The translations under genes were made by a program, and so were the position numbers. The notes under the pieces were generated by a model. That model was given only the letters and a program-made list of their open reading frames with translations, did no database searches and was not told where the DNA came from. A stretch of DNA of 64,000 bases, from the NCBI RefSeq assembly GCF_004792415.1, contig NZ_CP038854.1, positions 372,001-436,000 of the forward strand, read 5' to 3'. Shown in pieces: positions 17,946 through 36,742 of this stretch. Source of the stretch: Pantoea vagans (GTDB lineage Bacteria; Pseudomonadota; Gammaproteobacteria; Enterobacterales; Enterobacteriaceae). Each line of letters begins with the position of its first letter. The first letter of the stretch is position 1.

Positions 17946-17971
17946 TGTGACCCCATCACATAATGGTCACA
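17946..17971. promoter_or_regulatory. Orphan copy of the TetR operator
   Basis: TGTGACC (17946-17952), 12 bases, GGTCACA (17965-17971). The half-sites and spacing equal the operator in front of pump 1. The neighbouring bases (GATCTGTGAC before, TGGTCAC and then TGTCAATCA after) match the intergenic region between the channel gene and tetR at 31780-31820. A minus-strand TTGACA (17975-17980) is kept, but no good -10 remains and no channel gene follows. The rest of 17713-18272 holds no gene. Confidence 0.7.
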
Positions 17972-18200
17972 TCCTGTCAATCAGAGTCACCGATGTTAAG
18001 GGGATAAATTATACCGATACCGATCTCAGGAGCATGCACAAATGCACTGTGCCTGCCGACTCAAAGATGTAAGGCGTCCAGGAACCGCTCTCTTTGCCCT
18101 CATCCCCTGATATCACCCACTATTCAGCTGCCATAATCCTTTTTAACGACCCCTGCGCGGTAACATGCCTTTATCTGTTCATAACGAAAATTCAGCCATT

Positions 18201-18226
18201 TGTGACCATTGACTTATTTGGTCACA
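18201..18226 (+). promoter_or_regulatory. Operator/promoter of RND pump 1
   Basis: TGTGACC (18201-18207), 12 bases, GGTCACA (18220-18226), with a -35-like TTGACT inside the spacer and GAGAAT 17 bases further as a weak -10. The pump 1 adaptor starts 46 bases downstream. The same arrangement precedes pump 2, so a TetR bound here should block transcription. Confidence 0.78.
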
Positions 18227-18272
18227 GGAATGAGAATGCGCAAACTATCCTGTTACCGCTTTAAGGGAACTC

Positions 18273-19382
18273 ATGCTCAGGCTTAAATCCGCCACCCTTG
18301 CTGTTTACGTGTTGCCGCTGGCCCTGGTGGCCTGCGGTGAACCTTCCACCCGCGACGATCCCCGTACCCAGGCTCCTCTGGTGCGGACTGCAACCGTGGT
18401 AAGCGCGAGAGATCGAACCCACGCCTTTACCGGCGTTGTGGTCGCCCGGATTCAAAGCGATCTCAGTTTTAGAGTACAGGGCAAAATCCTTGAACGTCTG
18501 GTGGATACCGGTCAGACGGTTAAACGCGGTCAGCCGCTGATGCGTCTGGATCCGATTGACCTGACACTGCAGTCTCAGGCTCAGCAACAGGTTGTGGAGG
18601 CAGCACGGGCACGGGCTAAGCAAGCGACGCAGGATGAAGCACGCTATCGCGGCCTTGTCGCGACGGGTGCCGTGTCGGCATCAGCCTACGACCAGATAAA
18701 AGCCGCCGCCGATACGGCCAGAGCCGATCTCAAAGCCGCACAGGCCCAGGCCAGCGTGGCGCAGAATGCAACCGGTTATGCGGTGCTGCTGGCCGACGCT
18801 GATGGCGTTGTCGTGGATACGCTGGCAGAACCGGGTCAGGTGGTGAGTGCCGGACAGGCCGTTATCCGCCTCGCCAGAGCCGGTCAGCGCGAGGCCATTG
18901 TGCAATTACCGGAGACGCTCAGGCCTGCGCCGGACAGCGATGCTCAGGCTACGCTCTACGGCTCCGGCGATAAACAGGTGCCCGCCAGGCTGCGCCTGCT
19001 ATCCGATGCCGCAGATCCGGTGACGCGAACCTTTGAAGCGAGATATGTCCTGGAGGGCGCGCTGGCTAATGCACCGCTCGGCTCGACCGTCACGCTTAAC
19101 ATCGCGGAAAACGCCAGCAAAGCTTCGGTCATGAACGTGCCCTTAGCCGCGCTCTACGATCCGGGGAAAGGGCCGGGCGTCTGGGGCATTTCAGGTCAGC
19201 CCGCAACCGTCTCATGGCGACCGGTGCAGGTGATCAACCTTGGGGATGACAATGCCGGCGTTGTCGGAAACCTCAAGCCAGGTGAGCAGGTCGTTGCGCT
19301 TGGCGCACACCTGCTTCATGAGGGTGAAAAAGTGCGCACGTCGCCGCAAGGCAACGAGCGCAGCGCGGGGAGTCATCCATGA
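18273..19382 (+). CDS. RND efflux periplasmic adaptor lipoprotein (pump 1)
   Basis: A 369-residue membrane-fusion protein of the HlyD/AcrA type. The signal ends in the lipobox LALVACG, so the mature Cys is probably lipidated and anchored in the inner membrane. FRVQGKILERLVDTGQTVKRGQPLMRLD is the first lipoyl half and LLADADGVVVDTLAEPGQVVSAGQAVIRL the second, with an Ala/Gln-rich alpha-hairpin between them. Its TGA overlaps the pump ATG by 4 bases. It closely resembles the adaptor at 32536. There is no channel gene nearby. Confidence 0.95.
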   Translation: MLRLKSATLAVYVLPLALVACGEPSTRDDPRTQAPLVRTATVVSARDRTHAFTGVVVARIQSDLSFRVQGKILERLVDTGQTVKRGQPLMRLDPIDLTLQSQAQQQVVEAARARAKQATQDEARYRGLVATGAVSASAYDQIKAAADTARADLKAAQAQASVAQNATGYAVLLADADGVVVDTLAEPGQVVSAGQAVIRLARAGQREAIVQLPETLRPAPDSDAQATLYGSGDKQVPARLRLLSDAADPVTRTFEARYVLEGALANAPLGSTVTLNIAENASKASVMNVPLAALYDPGKGPGVWGISGQPATVSWRPVQVINLGDDNAGVVGNLKPGEQVVALGAHLLHEGEKVRTSPQGNERSAGSHP

Positions 19383-22300
19383 GCAAGGAACGTTTTAATC
19401 TCTCGGCGCTGGCTGTGCGCGAGCGCTCGGTTACCCTCTTCCTGATCATTCTGATTACTGTCGCCGGTATCCTGTCGTTCTTCGAACTTGGGCGAGCGGA
19501 AGACCCGCCTTTTACCGTCAAGCAGATGACCCTTATCACGGCCTGGCCGGGTGCTACAGCGCAGGAGATGCAGGATCAGGTTGCTGAGCCGCTGGAGAAG
19601 CGGCTGCAGGAGCTTAAGTGGTACGACCGCAGTGAGACCTATACCCGTCCGGGGCTGGCGTTTACCATGCTGTCACTGCAGGACAGCACGCCGCCTTCAC
19701 AGGTACAGGAAGAGTTCTATCAGGCACGCAAGAAAGTCGGTGATGAAGCCAGCAGCCTGCCTGCGGGCGTTATCGGACCGATGGTTAACGACGAGTTCTC
19801 TGATGTGACTTTTGCCTTATTTGCGCTTAAGGCCAAAGGGGAGCCGCAGCGTCTGCTGGCAAGGGATGCTGAATCCCTGCGCCAGCAGCTTCTGCATGTG
19901 CCCGGCGTTAAAAAGGTCAACATTATTGGTGAGCAGAGTGAGCGAATTTTTATCTCGTTCTCACATGACAGGCTGGCCACGCTCGGCATTTCCCCTCAGG
20001 ATATCTTTTCTGCCCTGAACAGTCAGAACGTGCTGACCCCTGCCGGTTCGATAGATGCCAGCGGCCCCCAGATCTTTATCCGTCTTGATGGCGCCTTCGA
20101 CACCCTGGAAAAGATTCGCCAGACGCCTGTCGTGGCCGGGGGCAGAACGCTGCGCCTTGCAGATGTCGCGACTGTTGAGCGAGGCTATGAAGATCCGGCG
20201 ACCTTTATCGTGCGTAATCAGGGCGAACCGGCGCTGTTGTTAGGCGTCGTTATGCGTGATGGCTGGAATGGTCTTGATCTCGGTAAGGCACTGGACGAGG
20301 AAACGACCAGAATTAATGACGGCATGCCGCTGGGTATGACGCTGACGAAGGTCACCGATCAGGCTATCAATATCAGTTCAGCCGTAGACGAATTCATGAT
20401 CAAGTTTTTTGTCGCCCTGCTGGTGGTCATGGTGGTCTGCTTCGTCAGTATGGGCTGGCGGGTGGGTGTGGTGGTCGCCGCAGCCGTGCCACTGACGCTG
20501 GCTATTGTGTTTGTTGTGATGGAGGCGTCCGGCAAGAATTTCGATCGCATCACGCTGGGTTCGCTGATCCTTGCCCTGGGTTTGCTGGTCGATGACGCCA
20601 TCATCGCGATTGAAATGATGGTGGTCAAAATGGAAGAAGGTTATGACCGCATCAAAGCTTCTGCCTATGCCTGGAGTCATACGGCGGCACCGATGCTGGC
20701 GGGTACGCTGGTTACCGCTGTGGGCTTTATGCCCAACGGTTTCGCACAGTCTACCGCCGGTGAGTACACCAGCAACATGTTCTGGATTGTCGGTATCGCC
20801 CTGATCGCCTCGTGGATAGTCGCGGTGGTCTTTACGCCTTATCTTGGCGTGAAAATGCTGCCGGAGATCAAAACGGTGGCGGGAGGACATACCGCGATTT
20901 ATAACACCCGCCATTACAACCGCTTCCGTTATATTCTGGGCCGCGTCATCGCAGGCAAATGGCTGGTAGCCGGTTCGGTAGTTGCCCTTTTTACGCTTGC
21001 CGTGCTCGGCATGGGGATAGTTAACGCACAATTTTTCCCCACCTCTGACCGCCCGGAAGTGCTGGTTGAAGTCCAGATGCCTTATGGCACCGCTATTGAG
21101 GAGACCAGCAACGCGACGGCAAAAATCGAAGCCTGGCTGCAGAAGCAGCCGGAAGCAAAAATCGTCACATCGTATATCGGACAAGGGTCACCGCGTTTTT
21201 ATCTGGCCATGGCTCCCGAGCTGCCCGACCCCTCGTTTGCGAAAATTGTTGTGCTGACGGACAGCCAGGAAGCGCGCGAAGCACTTAAGCAGCGGTTACG
21301 CGAAGCGGCGGCTGATGGACTTGCAGCAGAGGCGCGCATCCGCGTGACTCAACTGGTCTTTGGTCCCTACTCGCCCTATCCGGTGGCATATCGCATCATG
21401 GGGCCGGATGCCGACACGTTGCGCACCATCGCAGCCGACGTAGAGGCAGTGCTACAGGCCAGTCCGCTGATGAGAACAGTTAATACGGATTGGGGTCCAA
21501 AGGTGCCGACGCTGCATTTCACGCTTAATCAGGATCGTCTGCAGGCCGTGGGGCTGACATCGAATGCGGTGGCAGAGCAGCTTCAGTTCCTGCTCTCTGG
21601 CGTTCCGATTACCTCAGTGCGTGAAGATATCCGCTCCGTGCAGGTGATGGGACGCGCAGCGGGTAACATCCGCCTCGATCCAGCCAGAATAGCGGGCTTT
21701 ACCTTAGTCGGTTCCCTAGGTCAGCGTATTCCGCTCTCTCAGATAGGCGACGTAGACGTACGCATGGAAGATCCGATTCTGCGTCGCCGCGATCGCACCC
21801 CGACGCTGACGGTGCGCGGTGATATTGCTGAGCATCTGCAGCCGCCGGATGTCTCAAAGCAGATGCTCAACGCGTTGCAGCCCATCATCGATTCACTGCC
21901 AGCGGGCTACCGCATTGAACAGGCGGGCTCGATTGAAGAATCTGGTAAAGCGACCAAAGCAATGGCCCCGCTGTTCCCGATTATGATCGCCATGACGCTG
22001 CTGATTATCATTCTGCAGGTACGTTCGATGTCGGCGATGGTGATGGTCTTTCTGACGTCGCCTCTGGGACTGATTGGTGTGGTGCCGACGCTACTTCTCT
22101 TTAACCAGCCGTTTGGCATCAATGCACTGGTTGGACTGATAGCGCTGTCGGGCATCCTGATGCGTAACACGCTCATCCTGATAGGCCAGATTCACCATAA
22201 TGAACATGAAGGACTCTCGCCTTTTGATGCGGTGGTGGAAGCAACGGTACAACGTGCGCGTCCGGTGCTGCTGACGGCAATGGCTGCCATTCTGGCCTTC

Positions 22301-22465
22301 ATTCCGCTGACGCACTCCGTATTCTGGGGAACGCTGGCCTATACCCTGATTGGCGGTACGTTAGGCGGTACCCTGATTACGCTGGTATTCCTGCCAGCGA
22401 TGTACGCGATCTGGTTCAGAATCCGCCCGGATCACCCCCGCTCCGCTGACGAAACTCTGAGCTGA
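19379..22465 (+). CDS. RND efflux inner-membrane transporter (pump 1)
   Basis: A 1028-residue proton-driven exporter of the AcrB superfamily. The N-terminal FNLSALAVRERSVTLFLIILITVAGI is TM1. The TM4 proton-relay pair is visible in LALGLLVDDAIIAIEMMVVKMEEG, and the C-terminal half repeats the fold (FPIMIAMTLLIIILQVRSM..., GLIALSGILMRNTLILIGQI). It is of normal length, with periplasmic porter and docking loops in both halves. Substrates cannot be read. The protein is very similar to the one at 33644 along its whole length. It probably borrows an outer-membrane channel, for example the lipoprotein at 30299. Confidence 0.96.
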   Translation: MSKERFNLSALAVRERSVTLFLIILITVAGILSFFELGRAEDPPFTVKQMTLITAWPGATAQEMQDQVAEPLEKRLQELKWYDRSETYTRPGLAFTMLSLQDSTPPSQVQEEFYQARKKVGDEASSLPAGVIGPMVNDEFSDVTFALFALKAKGEPQRLLARDAESLRQQLLHVPGVKKVNIIGEQSERIFISFSHDRLATLGISPQDIFSALNSQNVLTPAGSIDASGPQIFIRLDGAFDTLEKIRQTPVVAGGRTLRLADVATVERGYEDPATFIVRNQGEPALLLGVVMRDGWNGLDLGKALDEETTRINDGMPLGMTLTKVTDQAINISSAVDEFMIKFFVALLVVMVVCFVSMGWRVGVVVAAAVPLTLAIVFVVMEASGKNFDRITLGSLILALGLLVDDAIIAIEMMVVKMEEGYDRIKASAYAWSHTAAPMLAGTLVTAVGFMPNGFAQSTAGEYTSNMFWIVGIALIASWIVAVVFTPYLGVKMLPEIKTVAGGHTAIYNTRHYNRFRYILGRVIAGKWLVAGSVVALFTLAVLGMGIVNAQFFPTSDRPEVLVEVQMPYGTAIEETSNATAKIEAWLQKQPEAKIVTSYIGQGSPRFYLAMAPELPDPSFAKIVVLTDSQEAREALKQRLREAAADGLAAEARIRVTQLVFGPYSPYPVAYRIMGPDADTLRTIAADVEAVLQASPLMRTVNTDWGPKVPTLHFTLNQDRLQAVGLTSNAVAEQLQFLLSGVPITSVREDIRSVQVMGRAAGNIRLDPARIAGFTLVGSLGQRIPLSQIGDVDVRMEDPILRRRDRTPTLTVRGDIAEHLQPPDVSKQMLNALQPIIDSLPAGYRIEQAGSIEESGKATKAMAPLFPIMIAMTLLIIILQVRSMSAMVMVFLTSPLGLIGVVPTLLLFNQPFGINALVGLIALSGILMRNTLILIGQIHHNEHEGLSPFDAVVEATVQRARPVLLTAMAAILAFIPLTHSVFWGTLAYTLIGGTLGGTLITLVFLPAMYAIWFRIRPDHPRSADETLS

Positions 22466-22635
22466 ACGTAATCCGCAACGGGCGTGATCGCTGACCAGGT
22501 GATTCACGCCCGACAACATAGCGGATTATGTTACTGAGGTTTCATAACAGGGAATCTGAACGTGATTTAAGAGGAGTGGAATGAAGAGCCTGCAGAGATG
22601 GATAGCGGGACAGATAAAACAAAAGTAAGGGCAGT

Positions 22636-22670
22636 TCAGTCCGGCTTTCAGGCATCTGAAGCCGGACTGA
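22636..22670 (-). terminator. Terminator between pump 1 and mesD
   Basis: TCAGTCCGGCTTTCAG and CTGAAGCCGGACTGA form a long near-perfect stem with a 4-base loop. On the minus strand it is followed by a T-rich CTTACTTTTGTTTTA. It ends mesXD transcription and may also stop pump 1. A second stem, GGGCGTGA (22480-22487) with TCACGCCC (22504-22511), follows the pump 1 stop without a T-run. Confidence 0.75.
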
Positions 22671-22687
22671 GGATGCTCAGGAAAAGA

Positions 22688-23719
22688 TTATTTTCCCAGA
22701 ATTTCTCTGCGGACAATCTCGGCACCCGCACTCAACGCATGCAGTTTGCCATTGGCAACCTGACGCGGCAGAGGAATCATGCCGCAGTTGGTTGAAGGAT
22801 AGAGATTTTCAGCATCCACGAACTGCAGTGCTTTGCGCAGCGTGTTTGCGACTGCTTCCGGCGTCTCAATCTCATGAGTAGCCACGTCGATAGCACCGAC
22901 CATGACTTTTTTACCGCGAATCAGCTCGATCAGATCCATCGGCACGCGCGAGTTCTGGCACTCCAGTGAAACGATGTCGATAGCCGAACGCTGCAGTTTC
23001 GGGAAGACCTCTTCGTACTGACGCCACTCTGTTCCCAGCGTTTTCTTCCAGTCGGTATTCGCTTTAATGCCGTAGCCGTAGCAGATGTGAACGGCGGTTT
23101 CACACTTCAGCCCTTCGATAGCTCGCTCTAACGCGGCGATACCCCAGTCATTCACTTCATCAAAGAAGACGTTAAAGGCTGGTTCGTCGAACTGAATAAT
23201 ATCAACGCCCGCGGCTTCTAACTCTTTCGCTTCCTGGTTGAGGATTTTTGCAAATTCCCAGGCCAGCTTTTCACGACTTTTATAATGATTGTCATAGAGG
23301 GTGTCGATCATCGTCATCGGACCCGGCAACGCCCATTTAATAGGACGATCGGTCAGCTTGCGCAGGATTTTTGCATCTTCAACAAACACCGGCTTCTGAC
23401 GTGAGACTTCACCCACCACGGTCGGCACGCTGGCGTCATAACGATTACGGATGCGGACCACTTCACGCTTCTCAAAATCCACGCCGCTGAGGTGTTCAAT
23501 AAACGTCGTCACAAAGTGCTGACGGGTCTGCTCACCATCACTGACGATATCAATGCCGGCACGAACCTGGTCGTCCAGACAGAGACGCAGTGCATCTCTT
23601 TTACCGTCAACTAACTCTTCATCCTGCAGTTTCCAGGGTGACCAGAGCACCTCTGGCTGCGCGATCCAGGACGGTTTAGGCAGGCTGCCCGCAGTGGATG
23701 TCGGTAATAAAGTTTTCAT
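22688..23719 (-). CDS. mesD: Core-type cobalamin-independent methionine synthase, MesD-like
   Basis: A 343-residue protein matching the C-terminal catalytic half of MetE. The zinc/homocysteine site is present: VHICYGYG (HxC), DEPAF, and the distal Cys in YPSTNCGMIPL. It lacks the N-terminal MetE domain that helps bind methyltetrahydrofolate polyglutamate. The adjacent DUF1852 gene is the partner known for the MesD family, described in Acinetobacter as a folate-independent methionine synthase needing MesX. I therefore read it as MesD rather than a generic MetE fragment. It starts 27 bp after mesX, behind AAAAGG. The methyl donor is not known from sequence. Confidence 0.85.
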   Translation of the reverse strand: MKTLLPTSTAGSLPKPSWIAQPEVLWSPWKLQDEELVDGKRDALRLCLDDQVRAGIDIVSDGEQTRQHFVTTFIEHLSGVDFEKREVVRIRNRYDASVPTVVGEVSRQKPVFVEDAKILRKLTDRPIKWALPGPMTMIDTLYDNHYKSREKLAWEFAKILNQEAKELEAAGVDIIQFDEPAFNVFFDEVNDWGIAALERAIEGLKCETAVHICYGYGIKANTDWKKTLGTEWRQYEEVFPKLQRSAIDIVSLECQNSRVPMDLIELIRGKKVMVGAIDVATHEIETPEAVANTLRKALQFVDAENLYPSTNCGMIPLPRQVANGKLHALSAGAEIVRREILGK

Positions 23720-23746
23720 AGCAGGTGACCTTTTGTTTTTAATTAA

Positions 23747-24727
23747 TCAAAGAACGGATTCAGCAGACCATTGTGCGAGAAGTGTCTGATTCGGCTTGAT
23801 GAAATGCGCCTCAGTAAACTTACCCTGCTCAACGGCCAGACGGCTGCGCTCTTCGCGATCGTAAACGATGCGGGTTAATGAATAATCCTGATGCTGCAGC
23901 GTTGGCTGATAGCACTGTCCGGCTGCAGAATTCGCGTTGTAGATTTCCGGGCGATAGATTTTCTGGAACGTTTCCATGGTGCTGATTGTGCTGATCAGCT
24001 CAAGATTGGTGTAATCGCTGAGCAGGTCACCGTGGAAGTAGAAGGCCAGCGGCGCAACACTGCCCTGCGGCATAAAGAAACGCACTTTCAGGCCCATTTT
24101 TCCAAAATAAAAATCAGTCAGCGAAGGCGCATCCTGCTGGTATTCGATGCCCAGCACCGGATGCACATTACCGGTGCGCACATAGGTATTTTTGCTCGAC
24201 ACACTCAGGCAGATGACCGGAGACTTATTGAAGTTTTCTTTATAGGCCGCTGAGTTGACGAAGCTTTTAAAAATGTTGCCATGCAGCTGGCCGAAATCAT
24301 CCGGCAGACTGAATTCAGTCTGGCCTTTATTGTGCTCTGTCAGCACCACGCTGAAATCATAATCACGCACATAGGAGGAGAAGTTATTGCCGACAATCCC
24401 CTCGAAACGTTCACCGGTTTTGTGATCGACAATATGGGTCTTCAGAATCTCAATCGCCGGGAACGATTCGTCGTTGCTGCCTGGACGAAGATTCAGCTCA
24501 GCAGAAATAATCTCAAGTTCGACAGCGTAACGATCGCTTTTTGGGTTGTCCCAGTGCGCCAGCGCGTTGAACCGGTTGTCGATCATCGCCAGCGCGTTAT
24601 GCAGGTTTTCCTGGCGTTTTTCGCCACGCGCCAGATTCGCGAAGTTAGTCGTCGCCCGCGTATTTTTCGAAGGGTTATAGTTTTCGTCGAAACGAATGCG
24701 CTTGAGGGTAAAGGCTAAGTTGTTCAT
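23747..24727 (-). CDS. mesX: DUF1852 protein, MesX-like partner of MesD
   Basis: A 326-residue protein beginning MNNLAFTLKRIRFDENYNPS and ending NQTLLAQWSAESVL, recognisable as DUF1852. It has no signal peptide or membrane segment. Family members are almost always next to a short MetE-like gene and are required for its activity; the biochemical role of MesX (possibly an oxygen-dependent step) is not settled. First gene of the two-gene operon. Upstream at 24886-24898 is a sequence fitting the MetR consensus, consistent with control by homocysteine status. Confidence 0.85.
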   Translation of the reverse strand: MNNLAFTLKRIRFDENYNPSKNTRATTNFANLARGEKRQENLHNALAMIDNRFNALAHWDNPKSDRYAVELEIISAELNLRPGSNDESFPAIEILKTHIVDHKTGERFEGIVGNNFSSYVRDYDFSVVLTEHNKGQTEFSLPDDFGQLHGNIFKSFVNSAAYKENFNKSPVICLSVSSKNTYVRTGNVHPVLGIEYQQDAPSLTDFYFGKMGLKVRFFMPQGSVAPLAFYFHGDLLSDYTNLELISTISTMETFQKIYRPEIYNANSAAGQCYQPTLQHQDYSLTRIVYDREERSRLAVEQGKFTEAHFIKPNQTLLAQWSAESVL

Positions 24728-25185
24728 CGCTATCGGGTATCCTGGTCGCTGATATGATTTGTTGCTTCAGGGTTATGCAGCTTTGCTATCCCTTAACACG
24801 CAGTCATATGACTCAAAGTTATTAACAATTCTTACTTTATGCCTCAACATCCGGTTGAAAAAAAGTGATTAAATTTCAACGAACATGAAGGAAATTCATG
24901 TTGAGGCGGGAAAGTGGGGGATTTTTCATGCGGCCAGCGTGCCTTTAACCATCTGACATTAAATCAGAATGTTTAAAGGCGCACCGGAAGTAAATTATTT
25001 TAATAAATATCAATGATTTAATATCACCCCATCACAGCGGCGGGCCGTTTGAGGGTTAAGTACTCAGACACGCCAGACATCATTTTATTCACCTTTGCGG
25101 AAATTAATCGATTCCAGCCTGCAGAAAATTGCTGCTCAGGGCGTGCACGGCCCTGACATGGAATCACCTGTGCCCTTCACGTCGG
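24728..25185. other. Long intergenic region with methionine-type regulatory repeats
   Basis: No gene seen. It holds the mesX promoter region, the repeat block at 24841-24907, and sequence downstream of the iclR gene including a small stem (CAGGGC/GCCCTG near 25137-25155) without a T-run. Confidence 0.5.
24841..24907. promoter_or_regulatory. MetR-like box within nested inverted repeats
   Basis: TGAAGGAAATTCA (24886-24898) fits the MetR consensus TGAA-N5-TTCA with the central A/T, and the palindrome extends to AACATGAA/TTCATGTT (24882-24902). A second pair, GTTGAAA (24854-24860) and TTTCAAC (24874-24880), lies beside it, and an outer pair GCCTCAACAT (24841-24850) and ATGTTGAGGC (24898-24907) encloses everything. 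All arms are exact. It lies about 115-180 bp upstream of mesX. Confidence 0.68.
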
Positions 25186-25896
25186 CTAAATCTTGTAAAA
25201 ATTATCGCATGTCACTTTATGCGCGCCAGATTTAACCGAAAGTCGGTTGGCCGCTTCTTTCATCAGTTTCCCCAGTCCGCTTTCACACTTCGCCTGCGTC
25301 AGACGTGACGATGGCCCGGTCAGTGCCAGCGCAGCGAGCAGCCTGTCGCCTTCTCCAAACACCGGTACGGAAAATGCCGCAATGTGCGGATCGCGCATCC
25401 CGGAGGTAAACAGCGGTAGTTCAGGTACAGTCTCAAACAGGGGTTCGTTCTTTCCCCAGTAGCGAAGCACCTGTCCGATGGCAGAGTTATCCAGCGGCAG
25501 AAAGGTGCCGGGCAGGCGCGTTTCACGCAGTCCTTCAGAAGGCTCAGCTCTGAACAGACAGAGCCGCTGATCGTTTTCTATCACATACCATGAGGCGCTT
25601 TCGCCCGTCGCGGTCGCCAGAGCGTGAAGCTCAGGCTGAACAATGCTGGCCAGATGAAAGGATTGTTCATAGAGCTTGCCCAGATAGAGCAGCCTCGGCC
25701 CCAGGGTATAGACGCCATTGTCGCGGCGAATCACATAATTCATGCGCTCAAGTGAGTTCATCAGGCGATAGACCGTCGTTTTGTGGTAACCCGACAGCTG
25801 CGCCAGCGCGGTAAGCGTCAGCGACTCCTCGCCAGGTTTGAAACAATCCAGCAGCGCCAGCGCTTTTTCTACGGCAATTACGCCTTCATTCCCCAT
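25186..25896 (-). CDS. IclR-family transcriptional regulator
   Basis: A 236-residue regulator with an N-terminal winged helix (EKALALLDCFKPGEESLTLTALAQLSGYHKTTVYRLMNSLERMNYVIRR) and a C-terminal GAF-like effector domain (LYLGKLYEQSFHLASIVQPELHALA). The late GDRLLAALALTGPSSRLT block is also characteristic. It is divergent from an aldolase/dehydrogenase operon, which it most likely controls in response to a hydroxy- or oxo-acid. Inverted repeats lie in the shared intergenic region. Confidence 0.93.
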   Translation of the reverse strand: MGNEGVIAVEKALALLDCFKPGEESLTLTALAQLSGYHKTTVYRLMNSLERMNYVIRRDNGVYTLGPRLLYLGKLYEQSFHLASIVQPELHALATATGESASWYVIENDQRLCLFRAEPSEGLRETRLPGTFLPLDNSAIGQVLRYWGKNEPLFETVPELPLFTSGMRDPHIAAFSVPVFGEGDRLLAALALTGPSSRLTQAKCESGLGKLMKEAANRLSVKSGAHKVTCDNFYKI

Positions 25897-25939
25897 TGGT
25901 ACGTCCTCCTGTATGCGACGGCAGGCAGTTTACCGCGCA

Positions 25940-26043
25940 ATTTGTGATTCACATCGTATTTACATCACAAATGAGTGCTTAACACTGGTGTGATGCGAAT
26001 TAACATCGATATAGTAGTTTTATATTGTACAACTAAGTTGTAC
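25940..26043. promoter_or_regulatory. Two inverted repeats in the iclR / aldolase intergenic region
   Basis: ATTTGTGAT (25940-25948) with ATCACAAAT (25964-25972) is nearer iclR. GTACAACT-A-AGTTGTAC (26027-26043) is a perfect 17-bp palindrome 26 bases before the aldolase start. Either could be the IclR-type operator; the second is placed to block the aldolase promoter. Confidence 0.65.
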
Positions 26044-26069
26044 CTGGTAAAACGAAAGAGGAATAATCT

Positions 26070-26762
26070 ATGCCACATGCAGAGAATACCTTCATCAATC
26101 GCGACATTATCCGTGTCGCGCCAGAACTTGTTAAACAGGCGGCTCAGTTCCAGGCTGCAATACTGGCTGATGTGGCCGGTCGACGCGGAACGCTGCATGG
26201 TCGCGTCAAACCGGTAGCCTCCACGATGAAAGTCGCTGGTCCCGCTATCACCGTCGAGGTCCGGCCAGGCGATAATCTGGCGATCCATGCCGCACTGGCA
26301 ATCGCCCAGCCAGGCGACGTGATTGTGGTTGATGGCAAAGGCGATATCAGCTGTGCCTTAATCGGAGAGATTATGTCGACCCAGGCTGAAGCCTCCGGCA
26401 TCGCGGGGATCATCATCGATGGCGCGGTGCGTGACGCCGATGCACTCAGCGCGAACGGCTTCCCGGTGTTTGCTGCGGGCCTGAATCCCTGTGGCCCGAC
26501 CAAATCTGTTGCGGGACGGGTCAACTACCCGGTTTCTGTCGCGGGTGCTGCCATTCAGCCGGGCGATCTGGTCATCGGTGATATTGATGGCGTGGTGATT
26601 CTGCCGCGTGAAGAGATCCCTGCCCTGCTCGAACTGGCGCAGAAAAAACTGGATTTCGAGACCGGGCGTATTGCGGCCATTCGTGATGGCGATCTTCGCG
26701 CGCCGTGGCTGGAGAAAGCCCTGCAAACCGCTGGCATGCTGACGGATGGGGAGACGCTCTGA
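26070..26762 (+). CDS. RraA-like / HMG-CHA aldolase-family protein
   Basis: A 230-residue protein of the RraA/class II 4-hydroxy-4-methyl-2-oxoglutarate aldolase family. The active-site elements GDVIVVDGKGDISCALIGEIM and GIIIDGAVRDADAL (with the catalytic Arg-Asp) are intact. The GDIDGVVILPRE motif near residue 170 is also typical. With a metal-chelating active site and a dehydrogenase partner, an aldolase or oxaloacetate decarboxylase role is more likely than RNase E inhibition. The stop overlaps the next ATG (ATGA). Confidence 0.88.
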   Translation: MPHAENTFINRDIIRVAPELVKQAAQFQAAILADVAGRRGTLHGRVKPVASTMKVAGPAITVEVRPGDNLAIHAALAIAQPGDVIVVDGKGDISCALIGEIMSTQAEASGIAGIIIDGAVRDADALSANGFPVFAAGLNPCGPTKSVAGRVNYPVSVAGAAIQPGDLVIGDIDGVVILPREEIPALLELAQKKLDFETGRIAAIRDGDLRAPWLEKALQTAGMLTDGETL

Positions 26763-27709
26763 TGACAACCCAGCTTCCCGTCATTCTGGTCACGGCCAGC
26801 GATCTGGCTCCGCAGGCGGTCAGCCTGCTGAACGCGTTTAGTCTGGTTTATGCAGGCAAACAGCCCGACGAAGATACCCTGTTCAGACTCTGCCAGCAGC
26901 ATAATCCGGTGGCGATAATTGTCCGTTACGGAAAAATTAATGCCCACATCATGGATGCTGCGCCTGCCCTGCGCGTGATTTCCAAACACGGCAGCGGCAT
27001 TGACGTTATCGATCAACAGGCAGCCGCGGCACGCGATATCCGCGTTCAGTCTGCGCCAGGTGCCAACGCAGCCGCTGTAGCCGAGCATACCTGGGCGATG
27101 ATTTTAGCCTGCGCCAAATCCGTGATAACGCTGGATCAGCGCATGCGTCAGGGGCACTGGGACAAATCCACCCATAAATCTGTGGAGCTGGAGGGCAGAA
27201 CGCTGGGTCTGGTCGGGCTTGGTGCAATTGGCGGTCGCGTTGCCCGCATTGGGCGGGCGTTTGGCATGAAGGTACTCGCCTATGATCCTTTTGCAAAAAC
27301 CTTTCCTGATGAGTGTGAGTCCGCTTCACTTGACGACCTGCTGCAACAGGCAGACATCATTTCGTTACACTGTCCGCTGACCGAACAGGCCCGCCAGATG
27401 ATCAATGCAGAGAAACTGGCGTTGTTTAAAAAAGGCGCCATTCTGGTAAACACGGCACGCGGCGGTCTTATTGATGACGATGCGCTTTTAGCGGCGCTGA
27501 ATGATGGCACCGTCGCCTGGGCCGCACTGGACAGTTTCCCCACTGAACCTCTGACGGCGCCGCATATCTGGCAGCATGTTGAAAATGTGATTCTGTCGCC
27601 ACACATTGGCGGTGTCAGTGATAACTCCTACGTGAAGATGGGAACGGTGGCGGCCACTAATATTCTGAACGTTCTGGAGTCCCTGAAAAACGAAAGCGCG
27701 GTATCCTGA
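26762..27709 (+). CDS. D-isomer-specific 2-hydroxyacid dehydrogenase
   Basis: A 315-residue NAD(P)-dependent dehydrogenase. The Rossmann loop GLVGLGAIGGRVARIGRAFG, the catalytic Arg region VNTARGGLIDDDAL, the Glu in SFPTEPLTAP and the His in LSPHIGGVSDN are all present. The longest frame opens 19 codons earlier inside the aldolase gene; the ATG at 26762 overlaps the aldolase stop and follows GGGGAGA. Together with the aldolase and IclR it suggests breakdown of a branched or methylated hydroxyacid. Substrate unknown. Confidence 0.93.
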   Translation: MTTQLPVILVTASDLAPQAVSLLNAFSLVYAGKQPDEDTLFRLCQQHNPVAIIVRYGKINAHIMDAAPALRVISKHGSGIDVIDQQAAAARDIRVQSAPGANAAAVAEHTWAMILACAKSVITLDQRMRQGHWDKSTHKSVELEGRTLGLVGLGAIGGRVARIGRAFGMKVLAYDPFAKTFPDECESASLDDLLQQADIISLHCPLTEQARQMINAEKLALFKKGAILVNTARGGLIDDDALLAALNDGTVAWAALDSFPTEPLTAPHIWQHVENVILSPHIGGVSDNSYVKMGTVAATNILNVLESLKNESAVS

Positions 27710-27720
27710 GCCATCTCTGT

Positions 27721-27752
27721 AGCCGGCTGGATAAGATTTATCGCTATTCAGT
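27721..27752 (+). terminator. Terminator of the aldolase/dehydrogenase operon
   Basis: AGCCGGCTG and CAGTCGGCT arms around an 18-19 base loop, followed by a T-run, 11 bases after the dehydrogenase stop. Confidence 0.7.
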
Positions 27753-27919
27753 CGGCTTTTTTATGGGTTTGAGTCTCTGCAATCACTAAAGGCGCTGAAG
27801 AGGCTATCATCGAGGCACGTGGGTTATAAATAATGCGTCTCTGCTTTAAGCGAGCAGCTGAAGTCAGACTGATGAGAAAGGCTTTCTCATTATTTAAATC
27901 ATCACATCCGTTCTGAGCC

Positions 27920-28783
27920 TTATATTCCTGAAGACAGGCGTGCGAAATGGTTTTTCATGCTGTCGGTCAGTTCAAAAATACAATCGAGATGCCTGCAGTT
28001 TTTCACGACCTGACAGCTTAAATGTGAATTACCGCAGCTGTTGAAAAACTCAGTCATTCGTTTCACATCAAACAGCTCATCCTGTTCAGCAAGCAGAATT
28101 GTGACCGGAAAAGAGAGCTTTTTTAGTTGCCCTGAAGGATTTTTTGGTGTCAGAGCATTTGCCATGTTTACGCTGTATACCTGAACAAAATCAGGTCTTG
28201 AGTGAATAACCTCACTGGGGAAATTAAGCATCACACCAGTGCGATGCCCTCCTGTAAAACCCGCACTCAGTGCATTAAAGATAAAAGCCCAACGGTTAAC
28301 TGACGCAAAAGGAGTAGACAACTTCTTGTGTAAAGCTGGCGGTGTAAAAGGCCTCAGTTCAGGCGACAGCAGGACCAGACTGTCAACTTTTCGCGGTAAG
28401 ACATGCCGGGTAAAGTAATTAATCAACATGCCGCCCCCGCTGGAGTGACAGAGCATGTGAATCCGGGCATTCTTGTAAATGATGCGGGCATAATCAATGA
28501 TGATATCCACATCCTGCCATATTTGTTCAGGGCTTAATGCATCTCCTCTGAGTCCACCTGAACGACCGTGTCCGCGAATATCTGTGAGACACACGCAGAC
28601 GGATAAAGCGCAGCTCAGTTGCCGTGCAGGAATATCGTAACCTGCATCAGAATTGACTCCACCACCGTGGTATACGATCAGGACTTCATTTACACATTTT
28701 TCAGGCTCGCAAATCCTGATATATAACCCGTTGACGTCAACTTCGCGGACTTTTTCCGGATGAGCAGTTGTGTTTAATGTCAA
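27920..28783 (-). CDS. Alpha/beta hydrolase (monoacylglycerol-lipase-like)
   Basis: A 287-residue hydrolase. The oxyanion loop YHGGGVNSD, the nucleophile elbow LCHSSGGGML (Ser in HSSGG, with Cys in place of the first Gly), the acid in LLAEQDELFD and the catalytic His in CRHLDCIF are visible. DIRGHGRSGGLRGDALSP is typical of lysophospholipase/monoglyceride-lipase relatives. No ATG exists in the N-terminal region: the frame opens with TTG at 28783 without a clear ribosome site, so the start is uncertain. It lies 42 bases after an SDR gene in the same direction. An exact palindrome CAGGAATGCATTCCTG (28799-28814) lies between them. Confidence 0.85.
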   Translation of the reverse strand: MTLNTTAHPEKVREVDVNGLYIRICEPEKCVNEVLIVYHGGGVNSDAGYDIPARQLSCALSVCVCLTDIRGHGRSGGLRGDALSPEQIWQDVDIIIDYARIIYKNARIHMLCHSSGGGMLINYFTRHVLPRKVDSLVLLSPELRPFTPPALHKKLSTPFASVNRWAFIFNALSAGFTGGHRTGVMLNFPSEVIHSRPDFVQVYSVNMANALTPKNPSGQLKKLSFPVTILLAEQDELFDVKRMTEFFNSCGNSHLSCQVVKNCRHLDCIFELTDSMKNHFARLSSGI

Positions 28784-28825
28784 CCAAAGAGAGGGGGGCA
28801 GGAATGCATTCCTGATTTTTATATT

Positions 28826-29611
28826 CTACACACCCATTACATATGACATAACTGCCCGATGGAGTCGTCGGGGGGTAGCCCAGGTAAAAAAGGTAATTGC
28901 CTTATTACCTATTCCCGGAACAATGCTCATCTTTCCGGCCTGCAAAGCATGAATTCCGGCTTTAACAACGGGTGCCGGCTTCATCATGACGCTTTTCAGC
29001 ATGGGGGTCAGCTTTTGCTGAGCTACGTCAGCAAAACCTGTGTCAGACATGCCCGGACACAGAGCGGTAACGGTAATACCTTCAGATTTGAGTTCACGAT
29101 GAAGAGCATCCGAAAATCTCAGCACGTAAGCTTTTGCTGCTGAATAGACGGCGAAATTTTTAACCCCCTGATAAGACAGCAGGCTTGCAACCATGAGAAT
29201 ACGGCCTTTTCCTGCTTTCTTCATATCATCTGCAAAAAGCCGGGTAACCGCAGTCAGACTGGCGATATCAAGATTTATTATATTCAGCGAATCAGTCAGA
29301 GAATGGTCAAGAAAACGACCCTGCAGCCCGTAACCTGCATTATTTATCAGTGTTTCAACATGGATATTCTGCGCCTTGAGACGCCGGTGAAGATCACTGA
29401 CTGCGTCAATGCTGGCAAGATCAACCTGCTCTACAATGACGTCAGTTTTGTACTTCTCACGTACCTCCTGCGCCAGTGACTCCATTTTGTCGCGTCTTCT
29501 TGCTACAAGAATCAGCGACCTTCCCTGAGCGGCGAACTGGCGTGCAAATTCTTCACCAAACCCTCCGGAGGCACCGGTAATGAGTACCCACTCAGCATCT
29601 GTATTCTTCAT
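28826..29611 (-). CDS. Short-chain dehydrogenase/reductase
   Basis: A 261-residue classical-type SDR. The cofactor loop TGASGGFGEEFA, the Arg pair in VARRRDK (favouring NADP), NNAGYG, the Ser in MVASLLSY and the catalytic YSAAK are all visible. Close in style to the DltE/YdfG-like SDR group that reduces 3-hydroxyacyl or oxoacyl groups. GGAGAAG precedes the ATG. It is second to last in a probable operon running from the channel gene at 30299. Confidence 0.92.
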   Translation of the reverse strand: MKNTDAEWVLITGASGGFGEEFARQFAAQGRSLILVARRRDKMESLAQEVREKYKTDVIVEQVDLASIDAVSDLHRRLKAQNIHVETLINNAGYGLQGRFLDHSLTDSLNIINLDIASLTAVTRLFADDMKKAGKGRILMVASLLSYQGVKNFAVYSAAKAYVLRFSDALHRELKSEGITVTALCPGMSDTGFADVAQQKLTPMLKSVMMKPAPVVKAGIHALQAGKMSIVPGIGNKAITFFTWATPRRLHRAVMSYVMGV

Positions 29612-29709
29612 ATAAACTTCTCCAGGATTGATTTTTAATAACAGCGCTTAGCCTCACCTGTCTGATGACAGAATCAGCTATCAGAGGGTTTATTTAATGA
29701 TGTAACTGC

Positions 29710-30213
29710 TTAAAATCTGGCGAGATTGTGAACCGCTAACATAAGTATGAGATTAAAATGATTTTCGCTGACTGCAATAAATTGCAATCCCGCCTCGCAA
29801 AGAAATTGCTGAAGCGGCTGGTTGTTGTCAGTAAAAACAGTCACGGTTTTACTGCTCTCCTTGAGGGCAATCATCGTCATCCTGACGCAATCGCTGCGGG
29901 GAAACAGAAGACGTAATTGCTGAACAGACAGGTTCGGGTTCAGCGAAACTACAGTATGGTTATTATTAAAATGCAGGTTTTCAGATATCTGAGTCAGGTT
30001 ATTGCAAGCTGTACTGAGAAAAACTATTTCTGATTCCTCTGAAACTGACTTGCAGTCATCCAGCGTCCAGCAGGGATAACCTCTTGCTACTTTTTGAACG
30101 TGACTGCAGTCAGAGGGATACAGAAATACCTGCGCTTCAGTTACGGAACTAAAAATCGCCCTTATTATGCCTTCGGACAACTCATCGAGGCCGATAAATC
30201 CTACTCTGCTCAT
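29710..30213 (-). CDS. Pyrroline-5-carboxylate-reductase-like Rossmann protein, short
   Basis: A 167-residue protein resembling only the N-terminal half of ProC. MSRVGFIGLDELSEGIIRAIF is the dinucleotide loop, with the usual GAGNM replaced by GLDEL. EIVFLSTACNNL corresponds to the cofactor-binding DVIFLAVKP, and TVVSLNPNLSVQQL to the next strand. The C-terminal dimer/active-site domain (SGSGPA region) is absent; the protein ends in HFNLILMLAVHNLARF. I start at the ATG at 30213 behind CGGAGAG; the frame itself extends further into the channel gene's end. It may be a degenerate or regulatory paralogue. Its substrate is unknown. Confidence 0.65.
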   Translation of the reverse strand: MSRVGFIGLDELSEGIIRAIFSSVTEAQVFLYPSDCSHVQKVARGYPCWTLDDCKSVSEESEIVFLSTACNNLTQISENLHFNNNHTVVSLNPNLSVQQLRLLFPRSDCVRMTMIALKESSKTVTVFTDNNQPLQQFLCEAGLQFIAVSENHFNLILMLAVHNLARF

Positions 30214-30298
30214 ACACTCTCCGGGCCGCAGGCCATAAACAACAGTGCTTATAAGTGATAATTCGAGACGGATAGTGCCGGATTGATTTTCCCGTAGC

Positions 30299-31756
30299 TT
30301 ATCGGGCATCAGCGTTAATCGCAGGTGGCTGCCAGCCGCCACCCAGTGCCCGAAAAGCAGCGACAGCTGCGCGCGCGCTCTCGGTCTGAGCCTGTGCTCT
30401 GGCGTCTGAAGTCTGAAGAAGATTTTGATCATCGTGTAAGACGTCGATCAGGCTTGCGGTACCCTGTTTCCATGCGATAAAAGAAGACTGGCGCGCTCCG
30501 GACAGTGCGGTTACTCCGCGGGTCAGAATGGCGGTCTGCATTTCACGGTTAATGAGTGACGAGAACGCATTTTCAACGTCCTCACTTGCACGTAAAACCG
30601 ACAGCCGATACGCCGACAGAGCCTCAGCTTCCTGGCCTTTAGCCTGATCTATCTGAGCGTTAATACGTCCAAAATCAAAGAGCCGCCAGCGCAACCCCAC
30701 CACGCCTGCAGCCTGGCTGGCACCGCCTGAGAAAAGATTACCGCTTGATACCGATGTTGCGCTGCCGAGTAATGCGCTGAGGGAAAACTTCGGATAATAT
30801 TCGCTCACAGCGACACCGATACGCGCATTTGAGGCTGCAAGATTGCGCTCTGCCACGATAATGTCCGGTCTGCGGCGTAAGAGATCAGCTGGCGTTCCTG
30901 TATCGGTAATCTGCGGAGCCTGCGGAATGGCTCCCGGCAAGGATAACGCTTTACGATGAGTACCCGGAGGCGTACCGAGCATGACGTCTAACGCATTCAT
31001 TGCGTTGTCAAGACCTGTGCGAAGAACCGGCACAGTTGCCTGTACCTGTGCGAGAGCCCCTTCGGTCTGACGAACCTGATAGCCGGGAGCCAGACCTTTT
31101 ATCTGAAGGAGCTTCACCTTTTCCAGTAAATCCTGCTGCGTTCTTATCTGTTTCTCAGCGATGTCCAGCCGGGTCTGTAATCCACGCAGGGTGATATAGA
31201 TATCAGCAGTCTGAGCAGCAACAGCAAGGCGTGTGGCGATCACTCCCGCTTCAGAAGCCTGGTAATCAGCCAGAGCAGCCTCGCGACCGCGTCGCAGACC
31301 ACCAAAAAGGTCAATCTCCCAGCTGGCATTGAGATCGGTTTCATAGCTATTGCCATAACGATTGAAGTCCGGCGTTGAACTCAGGACCTGGCCCAGCGGA
31401 GTTTCGGTCGACTGATATGCCCTACCCGCCTGACCGCTGACGTTTGCTGATGGCAGAAGCGCTGCTGTAGCGGCTCCTAGTCCCGCGCCTGACTGCGTCA
31501 TTCGGGCGGTTGCCTGCGCAATATCGAGGTTTTGTGCCAGTGCTTCTGTCACGAACTGACTCAAAAGCGGATCGTTAAATCCTTCCCACCACTCAGCAAA
31601 ACTGGCGGAATGTGAAGTGCTTCTCTGCAGAACAGCTGACTCATTCATGTAGCGTTCTGCAAGCGGTGCATCCGGACGATAATAATCCGGTCCTACTGTG
31701 CAGCCCGTCAGTAAACCTGCAGTCAACACGAGTGCAAAGGGACGTAAGTGGAGCAT
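30299..31756 (-). CDS. RND efflux outer-membrane channel lipoprotein (NodT/OprM family)
   Basis: A 485-residue outer-membrane factor. The signal ends in a lipobox (LTAGLLTGC), followed by TVGPDYYRPDAPLAERY, the classical start of NodT-type channels. Two internal alpha-hairpin repeats are visible, including DLLRRRPDIIVAERNLAASNARIGVAVSEYYPKFSL and the second-half AYRLSVLRASEDVENAFSSL. It should form the exit duct for pump 2 and probably also pump 1, which has no channel gene. Its promoter is covered by a TetR operator at 31783-31808. It heads a probable operon with the reductase-like, SDR and hydrolase genes. Confidence 0.95.
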   Translation of the reverse strand: MLHLRPFALVLTAGLLTGCTVGPDYYRPDAPLAERYMNESAVLQRSTSHSASFAEWWEGFNDPLLSQFVTEALAQNLDIAQATARMTQSGAGLGAATAALLPSANVSGQAGRAYQSTETPLGQVLSSTPDFNRYGNSYETDLNASWEIDLFGGLRRGREAALADYQASEAGVIATRLAVAAQTADIYITLRGLQTRLDIAEKQIRTQQDLLEKVKLLQIKGLAPGYQVRQTEGALAQVQATVPVLRTGLDNAMNALDVMLGTPPGTHRKALSLPGAIPQAPQITDTGTPADLLRRRPDIIVAERNLAASNARIGVAVSEYYPKFSLSALLGSATSVSSGNLFSGGASQAAGVVGLRWRLFDFGRINAQIDQAKGQEAEALSAYRLSVLRASEDVENAFSSLINREMQTAILTRGVTALSGARQSSFIAWKQGTASLIDVLHDDQNLLQTSDARAQAQTESARAAVAAFRALGGGWQPPAINADAR

Positions 31757-31782
31757 GAATAGTCCTTGAGACGAATATGATT

Positions 31783-31808
31783 TGTGACTACATTACCAAA
31801 TGGTCACC
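31783..31808 (-). promoter_or_regulatory. TetR operator in the channel-gene / tetR intergenic region
   Basis: TGTGACT (31783-31789), 12 bases, GGTCACC (31802-31808). On the minus strand TTGACA lies just upstream and TAATGT 16 bases later, so the operator covers the channel promoter. It also lies 38 bases before the tetR start on the plus strand, allowing autoregulation. Confidence 0.78.
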
Positions 31809-31845
31809 CGTTGTCAATCAACCGCTGTCAGGCTAAGTTGAAAAT

Positions 31846-32460
31846 ATGAATACACATACGACTCCTCCCCCCTCAAGGGGACCTTCTGAACACGCCATTC
31901 GTGATCAGGTGGTCATAGCTGCGACCGAGCACTTTGGGCATTTTGGCTATGAGAAAACCACTGTTTCAGACCTGGCAAAATCAATAGGTTTTTCAAAGGC
32001 ATATATATATAAATTCTTTGGGTCAAAACAGGCTATTGGTGAAGTCATCTGCGCCAATCGTCTGGATATGATTATGAAGAATGTTAACTCTGCGGTTGCA
32101 GAAGCGCCGACGGCATCGGAAAAGATGAGGCAACTGCTGCGGGCACTGACGGAGTCCGGAAGCGACCTGTTCTTTCACGACCGCAGGCTTTATGACATTG
32201 CCGCCGTGGCCGCCAGGGACAAGTGGCCATCCGCCGAAATACACGAAGAGCGGATTCGACAACTTATTGAAAATATTATTGTTGAAGGGCGACATGCGGG
32301 ACAGTTTGAGCGAAAAACCCCTCTTGATGAAGCGACGAAGGCTATTTTTCTCCTCATGAAACCTTACATCAGTCCTGTTCAGTTACAGTACAATCTTGAA
32401 ACAGCTGCTTCAGCCGCCGTTCTCCTTTCTGCCCTGATACTAAGAAGTCTTTCTCCCTGA
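31846..32460 (+). CDS. TetR-family repressor of the RND pumps
   Basis: A 204-residue TetR regulator. The helix-turn-helix is clear: DQVVIAATEHFGHFGYEKTTVSDLAKSIGFSKAYIYKFFGSKQAIGEVI at about residues 22-70. The C-terminal ligand domain (ALTESGSDLFFHDRRLYDIAAVAARDKWPSAEIHEERI) resembles AcrR-like regulators. The gene lies between the channel gene and the adaptor gene, with matching 26-bp operators on both sides (31783 and 32464). The same operator appears before pump 1 at 18201, so I infer that this single protein controls both pumps. Confidence 0.93.
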   Translation: MNTHTTPPPSRGPSEHAIRDQVVIAATEHFGHFGYEKTTVSDLAKSIGFSKAYIYKFFGSKQAIGEVICANRLDMIMKNVNSAVAEAPTASEKMRQLLRALTESGSDLFFHDRRLYDIAAVAARDKWPSAEIHEERIRQLIENIIVEGRHAGQFERKTPLDEATKAIFLLMKPYISPVQLQYNLETAASAAVLLSALILRSLSP

Positions 32461-32463
32461 ATA

Positions 32464-32489
32464 TGTGACCATTGACAAATTCAGTCACA
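32464..32489 (+). promoter_or_regulatory. Operator/promoter of RND pump 2
   Basis: TGTGACC (32464-32470), 12 bases, AGTCACA (32483-32489). A -35 TTGACA lies inside the spacer (32473-32478), and AAGAAT follows 17 bases later. It starts three bases after the tetR stop and 72 bases before the adaptor ATG. Layout equals that of pump 1. Confidence 0.8.
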
Positions 32490-32535
32490 GGTATAAGAAT
32501 GCGGTTACCTTCCTATTATTTTATTCAGGTAACCC

Positions 32536-36600: not shown

Positions 36601-36733
36601 GGCTTATACGCTGATAGGCGGAACATTTGCTGGCACCATCGTTACCCTGGTTTTCCTGCCTGCAATGTATGCCATATGGTTCAGGATACGCCCTGAAAAT
36701 CAGAAATTCGCAGATGGTAAAGCCGAAGAATAA
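33644..36733 (+). CDS. RND efflux inner-membrane transporter (pump 2)
   Basis: A 1029-residue AcrB-type exporter. I start at MSNSRFNLSALAVRERS (33644) because it aligns with pump 1 and overlaps the adaptor stop; the open frame extends 46 codons further into the adaptor. LVDDAIIAIEMMVVKM carries the TM4 Asp pair. Long blocks are identical to pump 1, including the TM4-TM6 region and the end of the C-terminal membrane domain, while the porter loops show more changes. Probably works with the adaptor before it and the channel at 30299. Confidence 0.96.
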   Translation: MSNSRFNLSALAVRERSVTLFLIILITVAGILSFFELGRAEDPPFTVKQMTIITAWPGATAQEMQDQVAEPLEKRMQELKWYDRSETYTRPGMAFTMLSLLDSTPPSQVQEEFYQARKKLGDEAKNLPAGVIGPMVNDEFSDVTFSLFALKAKGEPQRLLVRDAESLRQRLLHVPGVKKVNIIGEQTERIFVSFSHDRLATLGVSPQDIFSALNSQNILTPAGSIDTQGPQVFIRLDGAFNKLEQIRKTPVVVNGRTLLLSDIATVERGYEDPATFLIRNQGEPALLLGIIMREGWNGLELGKSLDAEAASINASMPLGMTLTKVTDQSVNISSAVDEFMIKFFVALLVVMVVCFVSMGWRVGVVVAAAVPLTLAVVFIIMEASGKNFDRITLGSLILALGLLVDDAIIAIEMMVVKMEEGYDRIKASAYAWSHTAAPMLAGTLVTAVGFMPNGFAQSTAGEYTSNMFWIVGIALIASWVVAVVFTPYLGVKMLPEIKTVPGGHAAIYDTPRYNRFRRLLARVIARKWIVAGTVIIVFTVAILGMGLVKKQFFPTSDRPEVLIEVQLPYGTSIEQTSATTAKIEDWLKKQKEAKIVTSYIGQGSPRFYLAMAPELPDPSFAKIVVLTDSQDARDILKERLREAAASGLAPEARVRATQLVFGPYSPYPVAYRVMGPDPDKLREIAGEVEAVMLASPDMRTVNTDWGQRVPTLHFSLNQDRLQAVGLTSNAVAQQLQFLLSGVPVTSVREDIRSVQVMGRAAGDIRLDPARIAGFTLVGSSGQRIPLSQIGDVEVRMEDPILRRRDRTPTITVRGDIADTMQPPDVSAEILKQLQPVIAKLPAGYRIEQGGPTEESGKATQAMAPLFPIMIAITLLIIILQVRSMSAMVMVFLTAPLGLIGVVPTLLLFNQPFGINALVGLIALSGILMRNTLILIGQIHHNEHEGLTPFESVVEATIQRARPVLLTAMAAILAFIPLTHSVFWGTLAYTLIGGTFAGTIVTLVFLPAMYAIWFRIRPENQKFADGKAEE

Positions 36734-36742
36734 CCATTAACC

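What the first reader, a model, noticed from the sequence alone, without database searches (positions are those of the whole stretch)
17946..32489. Four copies of a 26-bp operator link two RND pumps 14 kb apart to one TetR
TGTGACY-N12-RGTCACM occurs at 17946, 18201, 31783 and 32464, each with exactly 12 bases between half-sites. Two copies flank tetR, one sits on the pump 1 promoter, and two contain the -35 hexamer inside the spacer. A single TetR (31846-32460) should therefore repress both pumps. This is a directly readable regulon not implied by gene order.
Basis: partly seen in the sequence, partly recalled or inferred. Interest (0 to 1): 0.75.

Follow-up and report, generated by a model that had tools for sequence, protein, structure and literature searches.

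The report
Two plasmid repressors share pump operators
Four matching DNA control sites do tie two drug-pump gene sets together in this Pantoea-type bacterium, but probably not under one switch protein as first thought: a second, related repressor elsewhere in the genome carries the same sites and looks like the older partner of the first pump.

Summary
The motif behaves as a real operator: two or more exact copies occur in 19 of 20 genus genomes with this TetR and in 0 of 41 without. A site follows tetR in 79 of the 80 named loci kept.

The interpretation needs correcting. A second TetR (TetR-B, 59% identical, same recognition helix) lies on the 180-kb contig C3, flanked by the same kind of sites and followed by a FabF-like synthase. 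Pump 1 has no tetR beside it. In 9 of 9 other genomes with a tetR-less pump of this kind, one of them broken, TetR-B lies on another contig. P. vagans C9-1 has pump 1 and TetR-B, but its pPag3 stretch lacks the 12 kb holding the window's TetR and pump 2. The distal pump 1 site stands on a leftover tetR promoter.

Most likely: promoters blocked at the -35 by two interchangeable TetRs, pump 1 being mainly TetR-B's target in trans. Binding is untested.

The parts
17946..17971 (.). distal operator of the pump 1 locus
   Evidence: 0 mismatches; 21.8 bits; a paired distal site also in P. vagans C9-1 (2 mismatches) and G033 (1 mismatch)
17972..18011 (+). relic of a tetR promoter (CTGTCA, 17 bases, TAAGGG); no tetR coding sequence found
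   Evidence: second best of 127,920 positions in the window against a matrix of 54 tetR promoters; the best is the tetR-A promoter; no tetR coding remnant above control level
18201..18226 (.). proximal operator of pump 1, covers the -35
   Evidence: 0 mismatches; 34.5 bits
18209..18237 (+). predicted pump 1 promoter: -35 TTGACT 18209-18214, -10 GAGAAT 18232-18237
   Evidence: sequence; layout conserved among 79 named loci
18273..19382 (+). pump 1 periplasmic adaptor (MFP), 369 aa
   Evidence: HlyD_D23, RND_mfp above cut-off
19379..22465 (+). pump 1 RND permease, 1028 aa
   Evidence: ACR_tran; 87% identical to pump 2
30299..31756 (-). outer membrane channel (NodT/TolC type), divergent from tetR
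   Evidence: TIGR01845 above cut-off
31783..31808 (.). operator between channel gene and tetR-A
31811..31839 (+). predicted tetR-A promoter, -35 TTGTCA, -10 TAAGTT; 6 bases between the -10 and the ATG, so a leaderless mRNA is predicted
   Evidence: sequence; same distance from site to ATG, within one base, in 54 of 67 loci
31846..32460 (+). TetR-A repressor, 204 aa
   Evidence: TetR_N and TetR_C_27 above cut-off; S50-F58 invariant in 21 aligned TetRs
32464..32489 (.). operator on the pump 2 promoter
   Evidence: 0 mismatches; 28.7 bits
32472..32500 (+). predicted pump 2 promoter: -35 TTGACA, -10 AAGAAT
   Evidence: sequence
32536..33651 (+). pump 2 periplasmic adaptor (MFP), 371 aa
   Evidence: 73% identical to pump 1 MFP
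33644..36733 (+). pump 2 RND permease (start taken at 33644 by likeness to pump 1; the mechanical ORF begins at 33506)
   Evidence: closest solved chain MexK
36780..38102 (+). beta-ketoacyl-ACP synthase (FabF-like) after pump 2
   Evidence: NF004970 above cut-off; 75% identical to the synthase beside TetR-B
28225..40280 (.). 12-kb stretch absent from the same place in P. vagans C9-1 pPag3; holds TetR-A and pump 2
   Evidence: collinear blocks 17082-28224 and 40281-45722

Best explanation
A small TetR repressor regulon spread over two replicons, probably plasmids. The repressor is expected to sit on a 26-bp palindrome that covers the -35 box of the pump promoter (and lies between channel gene and tetR), blocking RNA polymerase until a ligand releases it. 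Two TetR paralogues with the same recognition helix read the same operator: TetR-A (window, with pump 2, channel and FabF-like synthase in a stretch that looks acquired) and TetR-B (contig C3, with another FabF-like synthase). Pump 1 lost its own tetR, of which promoter and operator remain, and is the target of TetR-B in trans; TetR-A can be expected to add to this. Shown: sites, their conservation, the second TetR, co-occurrence, relic promoter. Inferred: binding, repression, interchangeability, acquisition, the ligand.
For: Six sites in the genome at 0-1 mismatch, all at TetR or pump loci. TetR-A and TetR-B 59% identical, S50-F58 (recognition helix by position, recalled) invariant in the 21 TetRs aligned; the G079 TetR was not aligned. 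61 genus genomes: TetR hit at E 1e-30 in 20, adaptor hit at E 1e-100 in 18, all 18 within the 20. Of 55 exact sites in the 20 TetR genomes, 52 lie at TetR or pump loci; the 41 others have 8 sites in all (my count). 9 of 9 fetched tetR-less pump loci keep the promoter-side site at up to 2 mismatches. Named loci: site after tetR in 79 of 80, before it in 70 of 80. Relic tetR promoter at pump 1. C9-1 comparison. Joint decay of pump and TetR-B-linked synthase in the 3 damaged cases met, not a systematic search.
Against: No binding or expression data. Co-occurrence is not corrected for descent. Several genomes are drafts, so another contig does not prove another replicon. The pattern read backwards gives about one match per genome in both groups (24 in the 20, 43 in the 41), so single exact matches mean little. 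Distal sites of pump 1 relatives vary in distance (255 to 142 bp), and 2 of 8 intact loci show none at 2 mismatches. Four TetR-B promoters tested do not match the tetR promoter matrix. Orphan pumps may or may not be one clade (p-AU 0.386). Outside its pPag3 and pPag1 stretches the C9-1 genome was not searched for TetR-A.
Confidence: 0.8

Rival explanations
1. One reading: TetR-A (31846-32460) alone represses both pumps.
For: Same operator on both pumps and around tetR-A, all on one replicon.
Against: Second TetR with the same recognition helix and sites on C3; pump 1 with its sites exists in C9-1, whose pPag3 stretch lacks TetR-A, and such pumps in 9 other genomes where the one TetR hit at E 1e-30 is TetR-B type.
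Confidence: 0.07
2. The two TetRs have split: TetR-A binds only its own cassette and TetR-B only pump 1 and its synthase.
For: Spacers of the sites before tetR differ between A-type and B-type loci; TetR-A lies outside the TetR-B clade.
Against: Recognition helix identical; the arms and the TTGAC core of the promoter-side sites are nearly the same in both.
Confidence: 0.12
3. The pump 1 sites are relics that no longer matter.
For: The distal site does stand on a dead tetR promoter.
Against: The proximal site is the best-scoring in the window, is kept in 9 of 9 fetched tetR-less loci, and has lost its core in a strain whose permease is in pieces.
Confidence: 0.05
4. Another regulator, for example CRP, uses these TGTGA/TCACA sites.
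For: TGTGA and TCACA arms.
Against: Gap between TGTGA and TCAC arms is 16 bases, not the 6 of CRP (recalled); sites go with TetR and flank it.
Confidence: 0.02

Closest known systems
MexL-MexJK of Pseudomonas aeruginosa
   Same: MFP-RND pump with a TetR repressor: mexJK is proposed to be negatively regulated by the TetR-family MexL (PMC9323910, passages seen). MexK is the closest solved permease (839.8 bits).
   Different: Here a channel gene and a FabF-like synthase belong to the locus, and a second TetR on another contig has the same sites. The MexL operator was not compared.
EnvR repressing acrAB in Salmonella and E. coli
   Same: A TetR encoded upstream of one RND pump, acrEF, represses another, acrAB, through a 24-bp palindrome at its promoter in Salmonella (PMC9780535, abstract start, passages).
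   Different: There acrAB keeps its own regulator AcrR beside it (recalled); here pump 1 lost its regulator and the partner is on another contig.
CusRS/CopRS/CzcRS cross-regulation in Pseudomonas
   Same: An acquired regulator and resident ones share one palindrome (PMC11195947, abstract read).
   Different: Two-component activators, not TetR repressors; no regulator-less target described in the abstract.

Membership tests
TetR family repressor | N-terminal TetR helix-turn-helix domain | tested here: met
   PF00440 above cut-off in TetR-A and TetR-B
TetR family repressor | binds a palindromic operator at its own gene | not testable with these tools
   palindromes lie before tetR in 70 of 80 and after it in 79 of 80 named loci; binding not measured
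MexJK-like RND pump | permease closest to MexK | tested here: met
   two best solved-chain matches are MexK (best E 3e-251), third is 6vej, the other rows shown (60 of 80) 207 bits or less
MexJK-like RND pump | MexL operator sequence | not tested
   no MexL operator sequence appeared in the passages seen
MexJK-like RND pump | exports triclosan, erythromycin, tetracycline | not testable with these tools
   needs an assay
CRP binding site | TGTGA-N6-TCACA (recalled) | tested here: not met
   observed gap TGTGA-N16-TCAC in all four sites
single-regulator regulon | only one TetR of this type in the genome | tested here: not met
   TetR-B on C3, E 3.5e-81; the four other hits 2e-5 or weaker

The most novel reading that the evidence does not exclude
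Operator sharing lets incoming pump cassettes shed their own repressor: in Pantoea a resident plasmid-borne TetR reads the operator of arriving MexJK-like pumps, whose tetR then decays, leaving a two-replicon regulon. The window catches both stages at once: pump 1 with a dead tetR promoter, and a newly arrived cassette with its tetR still intact, so that two repressors, perhaps with different ligands, converge on one pump. The linked FabF-like synthases suggest that the regulon answers inhibitors of fatty acid synthesis.
Probability: 0.35. Interest if true: 0.6.

Novelty: new variant of a known kind. Interest (0 to 1): 0.45.

Why it matters
Repressors of efflux pumps are usually assigned by gene order. 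Here gene order probably misleads: the pump's regulator seems to sit on another replicon, and an added cassette brings a second repressor expected to read the same operator. This gives a clear natural case for testing how horizontally acquired pumps come under, or interfere with, existing control, and an operator motif precise enough to predict members of the regulon in Enterobacterales, Pseudomonas and Burkholderiales.

Tried and rejected
Neighbour 17083-17712 as a local TetR for pump 1: rejected, it is a LysE translocator with no BLASTP match to TetR-A.

A tetR coding remnant beside tetR-less pumps: none above control level. Weak hits were dropped: those of L182 and L183 lie inside a neighbouring 340-aa ORF; those of L181 are 11-15 residues long; the ORFs of L187 were not listed.

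Further targets in this genome: 28 forward matches at up to 2 mismatches; of the 22 beyond the six, four loci were scored (12.5, 11.3, 4.4 and -3.0 bits), and the two best lie inside ORFs; 18 were not looked at. An extra exact site in G016 C2 lies between ORFs and was not followed further.

One old split as the origin of all tetR-less pumps: neither shown nor rejected (p-AU 0.386). The pump tree used 38 rows: 2 of the window, 9 fetched, 27 chosen from the 80 named loci. The TetR tree used 30 of the 80 and left out G079; the synthase tree used 18 of the 80 and left out G026 and G079.

The tetR promoter matrix used 54 of 67 loci with a site before tetR, those with the usual distance to the ATG; up to three are Pantoea, and three TetR-B-type named loci were left out.

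Literature: search listings showed no paper on this TetR, its operator or this split; that covers only the open-licence library. The LPP-1 plasmid paper mentions six RND pumps on these plasmids (PMC3505739, one passage).

A structure job for TetR-A had not finished, and was not used. Searches failed (strand; file name); the alignment was redone.

Full report
What is there. The four sites are exact. Pump 1 is an MFP-RND pair at 18273-22465 and pump 2 one at 32536-36733, with permeases 87% and adaptors 73% identical. Pump 2 lies in the order channel(-), site, tetR(+), site, MFP, RND, FabF-like synthase, Bcr/CflA-type MFS transporter. Pump 1 has two sites 255 bp apart and no tetR; its neighbour is a LysE translocator. 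The window is 97% identical over 11 kb to plasmid pPag3 of Pantoea vagans C9-1, so contig C2 is probably that kind of plasmid.

More than chance. A matrix from 59 + 60 distinct sites of 80 named loci (6 of them other Pantoea) puts the window's four sites first with a wide gap, 21.8 bits or more against 8.5 for the next. In the whole genome the motif at 0-1 mismatch occurs six times; at up to 2 mismatches the reversed control has more matches, 66 against 28. In 61 genomes of the genus, a slightly wider exact pattern occurs 55 times in the 20 genomes with this TetR and 8 times in the 41 without; by my reading of the list 52 of the 55 are at TetR or pump loci. The reversed control occurs 24 and 43 times. 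Two or more sites occur in 19 of 20 and 0 of 41 (Fisher p 7e-15 on counts entered by hand, not corrected for descent).

A second repressor. The two further sites flank TetR-B on C3, 59% identical to TetR-A. The stretch S50-F58, the recognition helix by position, is invariant in the 21 TetRs aligned. TetR-B is followed by a FabF-like synthase 75% identical to the one after pump 2. TetR-B is 100% identical to a TetR on pPag1 of P. vagans C9-1, so C3 is probably a pPag1-like plasmid.

Who controls pump 1. Nine other genomes have a pump of this kind without tetR in the 10-14 kb fetched; each has TetR-B on a different contig, next to the synthase, and keeps the site on the pump promoter. Some are drafts, so a different contig is not always proof of a different replicon. 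One of the nine (G026) has its adaptor and its synthase in two pieces each. G079 has TetR-B but no adaptor hit at E 1e-100, a synthase in pieces and one site. In a third case, P. vagans FDAARGOS_160, the permease is in pieces, the pump-side site has lost its core, and only a 60-residue synthase fragment was found. Counting G026 and the window genome, 10 of 10 genomes with a tetR-less pump have TetR-B, and 1 of the 51 others has it. In C9-1 pump 1 lies on pPag3 with both sites, and the window's 28225-40280 is missing there. An IS1-like remnant lies near the right end of this stretch (likeness recalled).

A dead promoter. The 40 bases after the distal pump 1 site match the tetR promoter and start region of 54 named loci (up to three of them Pantoea) better than all but one of 127,920 positions in the window; the better one is the tetR-A promoter itself. 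The matching stretches of C9-1, FDAARGOS_160, G033 and G063 would rank 1 to 3 on the same scale. Those of G060, L184, L185 and L186 do not match, nor do four TetR-B promoters. So in the pump 1 lineage tetR was most likely lost in place.

How it works. The promoter-side site covers the -35 box and part of the spacer, with a 17-base distance to a conserved -10-like sequence. A bound repressor would block polymerase. The arms lie about two helical turns apart (20 bp centre to centre), more than one TetR dimer is known to span (recalled), so two dimers per site, as in QacR (recalled), is a fair guess. Site 31783 lies between channel gene and tetR and would serve both. The ligand is unknown. The permease is MexK-like; MexJK is reported to extrude triclosan in model strains lacking other pumps, though without effect in the wild type (PMC9323910, passages). 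Thiotetronate clusters carry KASI/II genes proposed for self-resistance (PMC5518548, passages). Together with the linked FabF-like synthases this suggests a response to inhibitors of fatty acid synthesis; this is inference.

Distribution. Not every locus is complete: for example L133 shows no pump, and many show no synthase. TetR-B forms one supported clade (99/96), as do its synthases (100/100). Tree support for one origin of tetR-less pumps is inconclusive.

Verdict. Observation confirmed, interpretation half right. The kind of system is known (local TetR, RND pump, cross-control as with EnvR and acrAB, PMC9780535). The variant is a predicted regulon kept over two replicons by a shared operator after the pump lost its own regulator.

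Noticed in passing
window 31811-31848: tetR-A is predicted to have a leaderless mRNA: 6 bases between -10 and ATG; 54 of 67 loci with a site before tetR share the distance from site to ATG within one base.
   Followed up: partly
window 39700-39978: IS1 insA-like remnant near the right edge of the extra 12 kb (likeness recalled).
   Followed up: no
window 40852-42301: Acyl-homoserine-lactone synthase and LuxR-type regulator next to the extra stretch, also beside the place that lacks it in C9-1.
   Followed up: no
L198 4331 (G016 C2:125330): An exact operator between ORFs away from any TetR or pump found; possible extra target or chance.
   Followed up: partly
L146 6694-7473, L175 6711-7487: Pseudomonas loci with a second, 54% identical TetR flanked by weaker versions of the same sites, about 3 kb from the first; L174 has such a TetR too, without sites at 2 mismatches.
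   Followed up: no
L182, L184, L185, L186: Pump loci with a second weaker site 142-146 bp upstream that does not look like a tetR promoter relic.
   Followed up: partly
L151 16548: Raoultella terrigena locus with a further site (1 mismatch) about 6 kb after tetR, beyond the pump.
   Followed up: no
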